From Desulfurivibrio dismutans (lineage in GTDB: Bacteria; Desulfobacterota; Desulfobulbia; Desulfobulbales; Desulfurivibrionaceae), in assembly GCF_029210385.1 (NCBI RefSeq), contig NZ_JARGDQ010000001.1:248001-312000 (forward strand): DNA of 64,000 nucleotides. Direction: 5' to 3'. Under the pieces are notes generated by a model. The model searched no databases and had not been told where the DNA came from. It saw only the letters and a program-made list of their open reading frames with translations. The position numbers were made by a program, and so were the translations under genes. Shown piece after piece: positions 35,152 to 48,593 of this stretch (the stretch's first letter is position 1; each line of letters starts with the position of its first letter).

Positions 35152-35259
35152 AAAAACATTCGGCAGTGTCGCAGGTTCGGGCAAGCAGCCAGGCGCAGCG
35201 TACCCCAGGTACGTAAGCCTGGCTGATCGCCCGAAGATGCGGCGCTGCCGAATGTTTTT
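35152..35259 (-). terminator. Very long stem-loop at the 3' end of rlpA
   Basis: Starting at the rlpA stop codon, nested arms pair almost throughout about 108 bases: AAAAACATTCGGCAG (35152-35166) with CTGCCGAATGTTTTT (35245-35259), TTCGGGC (35175-35181) with GCCCGAA (35228-35234), CAGCCAGGC (35186-35194) with GCCTGGCTG (35217-35225), and GTACC with GGTAC at the tip. Read from rlpA the stem ends in a U-rich tract, so it can act as an intrinsic terminator. The length is far more than termination needs, and it may be a mobile palindromic repeat. Confidence 0.7.
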
Positions 35260-45800: not shown

Positions 45801-46750
45801 CCGGCGGCCAGCCAACGGTAGCCGCTTTTCCTGGCGCGGCGGTCAAGCTTTCGCAGCGTGGGGTGCATGCCGTCGAGGATGTGGCCGGTAAGCCATAGAT
45901 CAGCCAGGCCGGAAAAAAGAGTGATAATGCCATTACCGGCGGCATCATTGGTGGCGCCGGCGGCGGCCGTCGGCAAAGCCGGGCACAGCAGTTGGTCACT
46001 GCTGACCTGGTTGTCCAGCCGAGTGGTCACGCCGTGGAGGAGGCGATACACCGGCAGCAGAGGATTGTGGGGTTGAACTCTGGTCAGTTCGATGGTGGTT
46101 TTGCTGATCAGGGCCAGGTGGCGGTGGTTATCTTCGGCCAGCAGGCTCAGGAGCATGATGATTCCTTCAAAGCCGGTAAAAAAGGCGCTCGGATTACCCT
46201 CCCGGCGACGTAGCCGACTCAGATCGCCTTTGAATGAGCGGATGGCAGCCGGAAAATCGCCGACCAGGAAGTAAAGCCATCCCCGCAGGCCGCAGGCGCT
46301 GAGCTTGTGCCGGTGTCGCCGAAAAAAATCCGTCGCCGGGCCGGTTTCTCCCCGTAAAAGCAGGGCGGCCATCAGCAGATAAAGAAAAGGTTGCTGAAAT
46401 TCTCGGGTCAGCCCGGCCAAAGCTGCCGGTTGCCGCAGGAAGTCGATCTGCGGTTGCAGGTCGATGAGGCGGGCAATATGGTCCCGGAAAATTTCCTGCA
46501 ACGCATAAAGCCTGACCTGGGCCGGCAAGGCGGCAAAGCGTGCCGGCTCAAAAGGCTGGGCGCAGAGGGTGAGTACGGGATTGGGAAAATCAGCCCGCTG
46601 CTTGAAGTTGAACCACTGCAGCATGGCGTCTTGGAAGCCATCCAGATCATTCCCCTGCAGGGCCTCTTTAAGCCGCTCGCTAATCTGCCGGTATTCCGCG
46701 GCTGGCGGCGGACTTGTCGCCATGGTCGGCGCCCGGTCAGGTTGTTGCAT
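42839..46750 (-). CDS. SNF2-family helicase with large uncharacterised N-terminal region
   Basis: 1303 residues. The C-terminal ~500 are a complete SNF2 motor: DDMGLGKTIQALALLL (Walker A), VVAPTSLCLNWQEEARRF, LDEAQAIKN (Walker B), TGTPLENHLTELW, LVFSQFVDHL-type motif IV, NLTAADYVIHLDPWWNPA and SDRAHRIGQKKPVTIYRLI. The N-terminal ~800 are unlike RapA: helical, TPR-like at 20-300, then a beta-rich region of about 400 residues with no motif I can name. Bacterial proteins of this kind (SNF2-related, sometimes with SWIM zinc finger) have no firm function; I see no CxCx zinc finger here. ATG 46750 follows GAGG. It may be transcribed with the downstream sensor kinase. Confidence 0.9.
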   Translation of the reverse strand: MQQPDRAPTMATSPPPAAEYRQISERLKEALQGNDLDGFQDAMLQWFNFKQRADFPNPVLTLCAQPFEPARFAALPAQVRLYALQEIFRDHIARLIDLQPQIDFLRQPAALAGLTREFQQPFLYLLMAALLLRGETGPATDFFRRHRHKLSACGLRGWLYFLVGDFPAAIRSFKGDLSRLRRREGNPSAFFTGFEGIIMLLSLLAEDNHRHLALISKTTIELTRVQPHNPLLPVYRLLHGVTTRLDNQVSSDQLLCPALPTAAAGATNDAAGNGIITLFSGLADLWLTGHILDGMHPTLRKLDRRARKSGYRWLAAGFQSLLPTDGRRQPDAFPVSWHLGALVKTTEPWRRAVMALHHDHPPIPPDRADSRRLAWLLRYREEQDHYGLRPVLQQRRQDGTWSRGRPVALHRLIKLADGPSDKHRSQPPPDALLPLTPQDQAICRCLAHQPQSRGGGFTSTPQLNLQLLVGHPHLFLADDPRQRLQVEHGQPTLLIEPEPPKQVRLRLHPFPPPAGQVLFRRDETAFQVISYTPALLELAARLGPEGTTRPLDNPAALGEMLTELPPDLAVFSCLDLQLPDCEPIRPDNRIIIQFFPTASGLRLRLRVRPLGQHGPDLCPGDGPPLLWAKISDHRYRLHRDLTAETSQARELATRCNLEWPPEPKSQGVDHDPSTWTLSTPQVCLDFLTRLQEQTPPVPQEWPAGRGFSVSPTIELQRLQLKISKKNDWFGLSGTLQLDDGLVMELDSLLRAARRGKGRFIPLGNGRFLSLSNELKRKIDEIEAFAEIRQGEVKLHPLAVRLLLDSNANQEPRERLQVTTDQHWQKFLARLQQNREQQAPPPAGLQTRLRHYQLTGYRWLRQMADLQLGACLADDMGLGKTIQALALLLARSAQGPGLVVAPTSLCLNWQEEARRFAPALKVIHYAGRQRSQLLDHLGAGDLVVCSYGMLQRDAGLLAAVHWHTIVLDEAQAIKNFLAKRSRAAMRLQSNCKLITTGTPLENHLTELWTLFRFINPGLLGSLEQFSKKFIVPIEQHDDQTARQRLKKLLTPFILRRLKDEVLPELPPRTDITLQVTMHREEAAMYEALRRQARATLKNGDGTHRPGAPLQVLAEIMKLRRACCHPRLVLPDSTLSGAKLDLFAKVVTELLENRHRILVFSQFVDHLAIIRQYLNEQQISYQYFDGATPARIRQQRVQAFQAGEGQLFLISLRAGGMGLNLTAADYVIHLDPWWNPAVEEQASDRAHRIGQKKPVTIYRLITTGTIEEKIRELHRRKSRLATELLDTNRSGPPRSYDELLALLEK

Positions 46751-47071
46751 TGGTACCTCGGAGTAGCATTGCAGGAGAGGTGGTGACTGACTTATGCATC
46801 GGAAAAAACTATATTGTATTCGACTTGCGGCAAAGGGGCGATCAATTTTTTTATCGTTTGATAATTATTCTTCTTGCATGCTGTTGGATGAGTGCCTAAT
46901 ATTGACAATGTCGTCGGTGGGGCTGGCAAATTGTAGCGGTCGTTGACTCCTCGGCAGCGGCGGCAGAACCTGATCCTCGGTAATCGTTGCCGTTACGGCG
47001 GCGATAAGGTTTCTGTCGTTAGTTATAACTGATGGCGACTGGGAGCGGCCGTTCCCTTGTCAACAATCAAT
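46751..47071. other. Intergenic region upstream of SNF2 gene
   Basis: About 320 bases with no gene. The part next to the SNF2 gene (46801-46900) is AT-rich and could hold its promoter. An imperfect hairpin ATCGTTGCCG-TTA-CGGCGGCGAT lies at 46982-47004. The right end CAATCAAT (47064-47071) is the left target duplication of the adjacent mobile element. Confidence 0.4.
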
Positions 47072-47205
47072 GTAACTATTCAGCTCATTCTGGCACGTAA
47101 CTGTTCAGCAGTGCCCCGGGTTGCGATAAGCCAAGTCGGCGTATCAGACATCAGGTATTCAAGCCGACCTGATCGGCGCAAGATGGGGTGCTGCTGGACA
47201 GTTAC
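47072..47205. mobile_element. Non-coding IS66-type MITE with 8 bp target duplication
   Basis: A 134 base element flanked by identical CAATCAAT at 47064-47071 and 47206-47213. Its ends are inverted: GTAACTATTCAGC on the left and the complement of 47193-47205, GTAACTGTCCAGC, on the right (11 of 13). A second left-type copy, GTAACTGTTCAGCAGTGCCCC-like, starts at 47098 and matches the right end at 18 of 21. Ends beginning GTAA and 8 bp duplications are characteristic of the IS66 family. There is no open frame for a transposase. Inside are ATCAGGT/ACCTGAT (47149-47155, 47166-47172) and GTCGGC/GCCGAC pairings. It ends about 20 bases before the hemerythrin ribosome site. Confidence 0.75.
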
Positions 47206-47236
47206 CAATCAATAATTTTTTTTGGAGGTAGCAACC

Positions 47237-47644
47237 ATGGCGATGTTTGAGTGGAAGGACGAGTACAGTGTCAATATCCGGGAGATTGACGAGCAGCATA
47301 GGCAACTGGTGGCCATGATCAACGAGTTGCACGAGGCGATGATGCAGCAGCGGGCCAAAGATGTACTGGGTGGTTTGCTCAACAAGCTGGTTTCATACTG
47401 CGCCAATCACTTTGCCGTCGAAGAGCGGCTGATGCAAACCCACGGTTACCCGGAGTACGCCTCCCACAAAGCCAAGCACGAAAAGATGACGGCCAAGGTG
47501 ATGGCCCTGCAGAATGACCTCAAGTCCGGCAAGGTCAATCTCACCGTCGAAGTGTCGCAATTTCTCAAAGACTGGCTGGATAAACACATCCTGGGCACCG
47601 ACAAAAAATACGCAGCACATCTCAACAGCAAAGGGGTTAACTAG
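47237..47644 (+). CDS. Bacteriohemerythrin
   Basis: A 135-residue single-domain hemerythrin that binds O2 (or NO) at a non-heme di-iron site. All seven canonical ligands are present: H21, H58, E62, H77, H81, H117 and D122, within EIDEQHRQLV, NHFAVEERLM, HKAKH and DKHILGTDKKY. In anaerobes such proteins are tied to oxygen scavenging or sensing; no sensor domain is fused here. The start ATG 47237 has GGAGG at 47224-47228; a TTG at 47222 lies inside the ribosome site and is rejected. The upstream MITE ends 32 bases before the start and may have displaced or supplied its promoter. Confidence 0.95.
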   Translation: MAMFEWKDEYSVNIREIDEQHRQLVAMINELHEAMMQQRAKDVLGGLLNKLVSYCANHFAVEERLMQTHGYPEYASHKAKHEKMTAKVMALQNDLKSGKVNLTVEVSQFLKDWLDKHILGTDKKYAAHLNSKGVN

Positions 47645-47663
47645 GAAAACGGGTTTGTTTTCC
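47644..47663 (+). terminator. Hairpin after the hemerythrin gene
   Basis: GGAAAAC (47644-47650) pairs with GTTTTCC (47657-47663) around a six base loop and is followed by CTTTAG, right at the hemerythrin stop. It lies between two convergent genes and could serve both directions, though the stem is short and A/T rich. Confidence 0.45.
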
Positions 47664-47672
47664 CTTTAGTGC

Positions 47673-48593
47673 TTACCTCGCCGCAAGATACGGCGCCCCG
47701 TGACCGCTGGCGCCGTATTTTCTCCGGTATTTGTTCTGCAGCTCAAGCAGCCGGCCCAGGTATTCTTCTCGCTGTCGGAGGGTTTCGGCGGCCGGGAGTT
47801 CCGCCAGCAGGCTGCCTATGGCTGGGCGGATGTCCAGCCCGTGGCGGTTGATGCCCTCCTCGTTGGCCCGGTCCAGAATCAACACCGAATAATAGGTGGT
47901 CAGCAGCCGTATGCGGGTGTCACGGCGGAAAAGGTAGGATCTCCCGCCCAGGGTGTTAAGAAAAAAACCGGCGTATTCGTAAAGGGCCGGCAGGGGCAAG
48001 GCCAACTGCAGGCTGCTGTTTTGGCACTCTTCGGCGATTATGGACCAGCGGTACAGCAGGGCTAGAATATTTTCCAGGTCTGCCCTCTCTTCTTGTATGA
48101 CCTCCTTGAGCAGCCAGAGATCTTTCAGGCCCAGCATCCGGTACAAATGGGCGGTGTTGCTGAGTACCGTGTAAATATCGTCGGTTTCGCCACTGACCGC
48201 CGGAGGGTTGGCCAACAGCCGTTCCGTCAGGTGCTTGAAGTGGGTCAGGCTGTCTGTGGGCAATTCCCTTTGCCCGATGTAGCCCCGCCGGTCCAAGTGG
48301 GCGAAAAATTCTTGGATCTGGTCGCTGACCTGTTGGCATTCATCCGGTTCTTCGGCGGGAAGGGGCAGCGGCGCAGCGGGCCGTCGTTCGGGTCCGGTCG
48401 GTTCCGGGGTGATCAGCGCGGGAGTGTCCGGTCGTTCAGCACCTGGCGGTTCGTAGTGTACCGCCGGCTGGCGCGGCGTCAGGGCGAAAAACCACAGCAA
48501 CAGGCCAAGGCCGATGATCATTATCAGGATCAGCAGGGCAATCGGCAGCAGGGATTTCTGCCGGGGGGCGGCACGTTTCTTGGTATCTGGCAT
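47673..48593 (-). CDS. Membrane-anchored protein of unknown function
   Basis: A 306-residue protein I do not recognise. After a basic start (MPDTKKRAAPRQKS) there is one transmembrane helix at about 16-40, a Pro/Glu-rich linker (about 45-85) and a helical domain of about 220 residues. That domain has LTHFKHLTERLLANPP, NTAHLYRMLGLKDLWLLKEV and ALYEYAGFFLNTLGGRSYLFRRD, so it probably sits in the periplasm as a globular helical domain. No catalytic motif or cysteine pattern is seen. Start 48593 is preceded by GGGAGG; longer in-frame codons to 48656 are rejected. Convergent with hemerythrin; the hairpin cluster is upstream. Confidence 0.75.
   Translation of the reverse strand: MPDTKKRAAPRQKSLLPIALLILIMIIGLGLLLWFFALTPRQPAVHYEPPGAERPDTPALITPEPTGPERRPAAPLPLPAEEPDECQQVSDQIQEFFAHLDRRGYIGQRELPTDSLTHFKHLTERLLANPPAVSGETDDIYTVLSNTAHLYRMLGLKDLWLLKEVIQEERADLENILALLYRWSIIAEECQNSSLQLALPLPALYEYAGFFLNTLGGRSYLFRRDTRIRLLTTYYSVLILDRANEEGINRHGLDIRPAIGSLLAELPAAETLRQREEYLGRLLELQNKYRRKYGASGHGAPYLAAR

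What the first reader, a model, noticed from the sequence alone, without database searches (positions are those of the whole stretch)
47064..47213. 134 bp IS66-like MITE with intact 8 bp target duplication next to the hemerythrin promoter
CAATCAAT flanks an element whose ends begin GTAACT and are inverted complements; GTAA ends and 8 bp duplications are IS66 hallmarks. The exact duplication suggests a recent insertion. The left end carries two tandem copies of the terminal motif, and the right end lies about 30 bases before the hemerythrin ATG, so it may affect that gene.
Basis: partly seen in the sequence, partly recalled or inferred. Interest (0 to 1): 0.6.

Follow-up and report, generated by a model that had tools for sequence, protein, structure and literature searches.

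The report
Hairpin jumping element before a hemerythrin gene
This 134-base sequence is a real small, gene-less mobile element of the IS66 (ISBst12-like) kind that landed in the leader of a hemerythrin gene, and it belongs to a little-noticed hairpin family found in about two thirds of the genomes of its bacterial order.

Summary
In detail: window 47072-47205 is a 134-bp element with an exact 8-bp duplication (CAATCAAT). About 45 related copies lie in the same genome. Of 35 aligned full-length copies, 14 carry an exact and 25 a 7/8 or better 8-bp duplication, always at the outer boundary. The site is empty in three congeners. The genome's only IS66 has GTAAGCG ends. Matching ends (GTAACTATCCAGC, GTAACTATTCAGC, 8-bp duplications) occur on single-gene, ISBst12-type IS66 elements in other genomes of the order and resemble those of the experimentally mobile ISDge4. 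No such transposase exists in this genome, so mobilisation in trans is inferred. 'Recent' is unsupported: this copy differs 6% from its consensus, and duplication intactness does not track divergence. It sits in the 5' leader just before the Shine-Dalgarno, not at the promoter. Unexpectedly, the element is asymmetric: a simple left end plus a 109-bp hairpin module at the right. That hairpin is found in 169 of 253 order genomes, has 14 of 29 pairs with compensatory changes, and carries strand-specific wobbles. It matches no Rfam family. This suggests selection on a folded strand; its role is unknown.

The parts
47064..47071 (.). left 8-bp target duplication CAATCAAT
47072..47205 (+). 134-bp mobile element (IS66/ISBst12-type MITE)
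   Evidence: copies in own genome, duplications, empty sites in congeners
47072..47084 (+). outer left terminal repeat GTAACTATTCAGC
   Evidence: same 13 bases as the ends of a tnpC-only IS66 element in the order (L115); one base from L128 GTAACTATCCAGC
47085..47096 (+). 12-nt spacer (about 32 nt in most other genera of the order, giving a 45-nt outer arm)
47097..47205 (+). 109-bp hairpin module (core); its right terminus is also the element's right end
   Evidence: fold z -5.3 (DNA) and -6.0 (RNA); covariance model R1 105.3 bits; 14 of 29 pairs with compensatory changes
47206..47213 (.). right 8-bp target duplication CAATCAAT
46874..46902 (+). putative sigma70-like promoter TTGCAT-17-TAATAT of the hemerythrin gene, conserved in position in three congeners
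   Evidence: read from the flanks aligned; not found by the generic scan; function inferred
47237..47644 (+). bacteriohemerythrin gene, with Shine-Dalgarno GGAGG just upstream (about 47223-47228)
35152..35259 (+). second hairpin-module copy in the window; GTAA termini replaced by AAAAAC/GTTTTT on both sides with the stem kept
   Evidence: model R1 101.2 bits, sequence

Best explanation
The feature is a non-autonomous IS66-family mobile element (MITE) of the single-ORF, ISBst12-like subgroup. Shown: it is repetitive, it duplicates 8 bp on insertion, its terminal 13 bases equal those of tnpC-only IS66 elements elsewhere in the order, and it is absent from this site in three congeners. Inferred: an ISBst12-type TnpC acting in trans binds the GTAACTRTYCAGC ends and joins them to a staggered target, giving 8-bp duplications; the source transposase has since been lost from, or was never resident in, this genome, so the copies may now be stranded. 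The element is composite: a simple left end, and at the right a hairpin module whose two arms each carry the terminal motif, hence the 'doubled' left motif. The hairpin is maintained as a folded structure on one strand across the order, probably because the single-stranded form (transcript or transposition intermediate) matters to the element or to the host. At this locus it adds a very stable hairpin (about -60 kcal/mol as RNA) to the hemerythrin 5' leader immediately upstream of the Shine-Dalgarno; an effect on expression is plausible but untested.
For: Copies. TSD: (in one search, 26 of 308 distinct right ends, pooled over genomes, have an exact 8-mer duplication next to a GTAA end 124-255 bp away; about 0.1 expected). 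Empty site. Matching IS66 ends with exact 8-bp duplications: L128 GTAACTATCCAGC both ends, 1729 bp, GAATATTT; L115 GTAACTATTCAGC both ends, 1712 bp, ATTTGTTT; L112-L114 GTAACTACTCAGC. Their proteins are IS66 transposases (L112, L115, L128 tested: PF03050 and NF033517). G046 carries both such an IS and the MITE. ISDge4, an ISBst12-group element that transposed in the laboratory, has ends GTGACTACTCAGCA / GTAACTGCTCAGCA and an 8-bp repeat (PMC12898284). Hairpin covariation: (105 two-sided cells vs 38.3 in shuffles, 0/500). Strand asymmetry: (34 of 35 fold better on this strand; 114 G-U vs 13 A-C cells).
Against: No transposase with matching ends is in this genome (one IS66, ends GTAAGCG), nor in nine other MITE-bearing relatives tested. 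The intact ISBst12-type elements examined do not carry the hairpin, so the MITE is not a simple internal deletion of a known element. Movement was not observed. Eight of the window copy's 134 bases differ from the family consensus, so it is not very young.
Confidence: 0.87

Rival explanations
1. The MITE is mobilised by the genome's own canonical IS66 (tnpA-tnpB-tnpC), which shares the GTAA start and the inner CCCCATCTT box.
For: Canonical IS66 ends in the order read GTAAGCGNN...AACCCCATCTT, and the MITE's right end reads GTAACTGTCCAGCAGCACCCCATCTT. One such IS66 is present in this genome.
Against: The bases between differ (GTAAGCGCTCAATGAACC vs GTAACTGTCCAGCAGCAC). Tested MITE-bearing genomes of the genus and family (G001, G003, G007, G010, G013, G016, G019) have no IS66.
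Confidence: 0.07
2. The hairpin is primarily a host or RNA element (terminator, mRNA processing or stability element) conserved by selection, and the transposon-like ends are secondary.
For: Strong two-sided covariation and strand-specific wobbles; copies whose GTAA ends are lost but whose stem is kept (window 35152-35259, L310); 169 of 253 genomes of the order.
Against: Copies of the window subfamily show 8-bp duplications and scatter without a preferred gene context (13 divergent, 13 tandem, 12 convergent); no Rfam match.
Confidence: 0.15
3. REP/RAYT-type palindrome moved by a TnpA-REP tyrosine transposase.
For: Palindromic, intergenic, GTA(A/G) start, high copy number.
Against: RAYT movement gives no target duplication (own knowledge); here exact 8-bp duplications are frequent.
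Confidence: 0.02

Closest known systems
IS66 family, ISBst12 group (e.g. ISDge4, PMC12898284; ISBst12)
   Same: Terminal sequence GTAACT--TCAGC(A)-like and 8-bp target duplication; single-ORF IS66 members with these ends are present in the same order (L112-L115, L128).
   Different: The window element has no transposase gene, is 134 bp, and its right end is a 109-bp hairpin module that the intact IS elements examined lack.
Bacterial MITEs such as ERIC, Correia and MITEPsy1 (review PMC10969869; PMC3189936)
   Same: Short, gene-less, high copy, terminal repeats, target duplications, transcripts forming stable hairpins, mostly intergenic.
   Different: Different ends and duplication length; order-wide conservation of one asymmetric, strand-specific covarying hairpin. 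The held review does not mention IS66.
Canonical IS66 (tnpABC)
   Same: GTAA start, 8-bp duplication, a CCCCATCTT box near the end.
   Different: The bases between GTAA and that box differ; three genes.

Membership tests
MITE (non-autonomous DNA transposon) | short, no transposase gene, terminal inverted repeats | tested here: met
   134 bp; ends GTAACTATTCAGC / GTAACTGTCCAGC, 11 of 13 identical
MITE (non-autonomous DNA transposon) | target-site duplication | tested here: met
   8-bp, 14 of 35 exact and 25 of 35 at 7/8 or better
MITE (non-autonomous DNA transposon) | multiple copies at different loci and empty sites | tested here: met
   about 45 further copies; empty orthologous leaders in three congeners
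MITE (non-autonomous DNA transposon) | moved in trans by a transposase recognising its ends | not testable with these tools
   needs a transposition assay; no cognate transposase in the genome
IS66 family, ISBst12 group | ends beginning GTAA and matching those of the group | tested here: met
   13-base identity with L115 ends; L128 differs by one base; ISDge4 ends similar
IS66 family, ISBst12 group | 8-bp duplication | tested here: met
IS66 family, ISBst12 group | encodes TnpC | tested here: not met
   no gene in 134 bp; hence 'works like / mobilised like', not an IS66 insertion sequence itself
Known RNA family (Rfam) | match to a covariance model | tested here: not met
   no match at E up to 1 in 46700-47700
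REP/RAYT elements | no target duplication | tested here: not met
   clear 8-bp duplications

The most novel reading that the evidence does not exclude
The hairpin module is an order-wide, strand-specific structured nucleic acid (RNA or single-stranded DNA) kept by selection and spread by borrowing IS66-type ends, so that one parasitic or domesticated structure populates most genomes of the order, at tens to more than a hundred copies in some.
Probability: 0.3. Interest if true: 0.65.

Novelty: new variant of a known kind. Interest (0 to 1): 0.42.

Why it matters
It documents an abundant IS66/ISBst12-type MITE family with an asymmetric build and a covarying, strand-specific hairpin. It is in 67% of the genomes sampled in the order, against about 2% of sampled genomes in other orders of the phylum. 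Such a family can move hairpins into leaders and 3' regions of genes across a whole order of bacteria, and it offers a natural test of whether a transposon end can be selected as a folded single strand. The hemerythrin insertion itself is one ordinary instance.

Tried and rejected
Resident canonical IS66 as source: its ends are GTAAGCGCTCAATG. Hairpin as part of an intact IS66: L117 (G179:C156) shows the hairpin abutting a tnpC, but it starts near a contig edge, the N-terminus of that tnpC is replaced, and close relatives (L138-L140) lack the hairpin, so I read it as an insertion. Solo core as the mobile unit: no duplications at the core boundary. Promoter or terminator inside the element: the generic scan found none above chance. 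A terminator role suggested by placement: gene context of 46 copies is unbiased (crude ORF calling). Recency from the exact duplication: no correlation with divergence. Literature: no paper describing this family was found, but most subscription papers are not in the library; PMC95320 on IS679/IS66 is not held.

Full report
OBSERVATION. Window 47064-47213 reads CAATCAAT, 134 bp, CAATCAAT. The element runs 47072-47205. Its left end is GTAACTATTCAGC, its right end (other strand) GTAACTGTCCAGC, and a second copy of the motif, GTAACTGTTCAGC, begins at 47097. The right end is 31 bp from the ATG (47237) of a bacteriohemerythrin gene.

IT IS A MOBILE ELEMENT. The genome (G000, 2.84 Mb, 33 contigs, 99.99% complete) holds about 45 further copies at 73-93% identity. 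In 35 full-length copies that could be aligned, flanks at the outer boundary match 8/8 in 14 and at least 7/8 in 25; at the boundary of the inner 109-bp core they do not. Pooled over all loci held at that point, 26 of 308 distinct right ends have an exact 8-mer duplication next to a GTAA 124-255 bp away, and one at 1712 bp (an intact IS); about 0.1 is expected by chance (the expectation is my estimate). The hemerythrin leaders of three congeners (G001, G002, G003) lack the element, with the same upstream gene neighbour recognisable in the alignment. So it inserted in this lineage.

AGE. The window copy differs from the consensus of its subfamily at 8 of 134 bases (6%), and among copies the number of matching duplication bases does not fall with divergence (Spearman rho -0.005). 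The exact duplication is therefore weak evidence for recency.

WHICH TRANSPOSASE. The only IS66 in the genome (L040) has canonical ends GTAAGCGCTCAATGAACCCC, as do most canonical IS66 of the order whose ends could be found (GTAAGCGNN...CCCCATCTT, 8-bp duplications). Single-gene IS66 elements of the order have ends that match the MITE: L115 GTAACTATTCAGC at both ends (1712 bp, TSD ATTTGTTT), L128 GTAACTATCCAGC at both ends (1729 bp, TSD GAATATTT), L112-L114 GTAACTACTCAGC (about 1.6 kb, exact 8-bp TSDs); the proteins tested (L112, L115, L128) are IS66 transposases. The single-ORF layout and ends are those of the ISBst12 group: ISDge4, seen to transpose in Deinococcus geothermalis, has TIRs GTGACTACTCAGCA and GTAACTGCTCAGCA and an 8-bp direct repeat (PMC12898284). 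Genome G046 contains both L128 and hairpin MITEs. No such TnpC was found in this genome or in nine other MITE-bearing relatives. Mobilisation in trans by such an enzyme, now absent, is therefore an inference from ends and duplication length.

ANATOMY ACROSS THE ORDER. In relatives the outer arm is usually about 45 nt (GTAACTATCCAGCTTAATGCCGG...CCAAACC) followed by the same core; in the window's subfamily it is 25 nt. The core folds into one long hairpin (z of the whole element -5.3 as DNA, -6.0 as RNA). Alignment A1 of 35 diverse cores (72% mean column identity) gives 29 pairs; 14 have two-sided changes, 96.1% of cells pair, 105 cells have two-sided changes against 38.3 in shuffles (0/500), and slid structures collapse. 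Examples: GTAATCG/CGATTAC, GTAAACG/CGTTTAC, GTAAGCGGCC/GGCCGCTTAC. Caveat: cores were extracted with a requirement for GTAA/TTAC and similar termini, which favours pairing in the outer ~22 bp and fixes those four bases; helices 2 and 3 lie inside that limit and also covary. Three positions are nearly fixed G-U or U-G wobbles, so the strand shown folds better than its complement in 34 of 35 (114 G-U cells against 13 A-C; 27 against 13 without the three fixed columns). The outer arm lies on the 5' side of this strand.

DISTRIBUTION. Model R1 finds the hairpin in 169 of 253 genomes of the order, 55 of 69 genera (matches per genome are capped at 15 there). A right-end pattern gives 85, 133 and 148 matches in G000, G002 and G013 against none for the reversed control. 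In a phylum-wide sample 8 genomes outside the order, of roughly 330, had matches, mostly weak. Named records with the right end are mainly Desulfobulbaceae, Desulfurivibrio, Desulfocapsaceae and unnamed Deltaproteobacteria; that the order is Desulfobulbales and the window near Desulfurivibrio is my inference from these names.

THIS LOCUS. A TTGCAT-17-TAATAT motif (46874-46902) is positionally conserved in the three congeners and precedes the element by about 170 bp. If it is the promoter, the element is transcribed in the hemerythrin leader, with the hairpin ending about 18 nt before the Shine-Dalgarno, in the better-folding orientation. No terminator-like site was called. Whether expression changes is unknown.

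OTHER FATES. The second module in the window (35152-35259) has AAAAAC.../...GTTTTT instead of GTAAC/GTTAC, with the stem intact, and lies directly 3' of a minus-strand ORF; it looks like an exapted terminator. L310 in G004 similarly reads GGAAACG/CGTTTCC. These hint that the fold can be kept after mobility is lost, but two cases are not a test.

VERDICT. A confirmed MITE with IS66/ISBst12-type ends; one instance of an order-wide hairpin MITE family for which I found no description.

Noticed in passing
window 35152-35259: Second hairpin-module copy, without GTAA ends; A-tract/T-tract flanked stem just 3' of a minus-strand ORF, likely used as a terminator.
   Followed up: partly
L138 553-2854; L140; L139; L318 1221-2111: IS66 variants with ends GTAACCGTTCACCGGG (L318: GTAAATATTCGGCCAACCCCGT) have a second ORF beside TnpC; in L138 that ORF is a DruA-domain (Druantia) protein (PF14236, E 2.3e-33), and the others look alike.
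   Followed up: partly
L285-L291 (G003): Genome G003 has at least 15 equal-scoring hairpins, most lying at contig ends (about 121 nt in), which suggests a recent burst that breaks the assembly.
   Followed up: partly
L117 33-1557 (G179:C156): Hairpin module abuts and replaces the first codons of an IS66 tnpC, at a contig edge; either a nested insertion or an IS with a hairpin end.
   Followed up: partly
L040 2500-7600: The canonical IS66 of the genome is flanked by long direct repeats (116 nt and 300 nt) rather than an 8-bp duplication.
   Followed up: no
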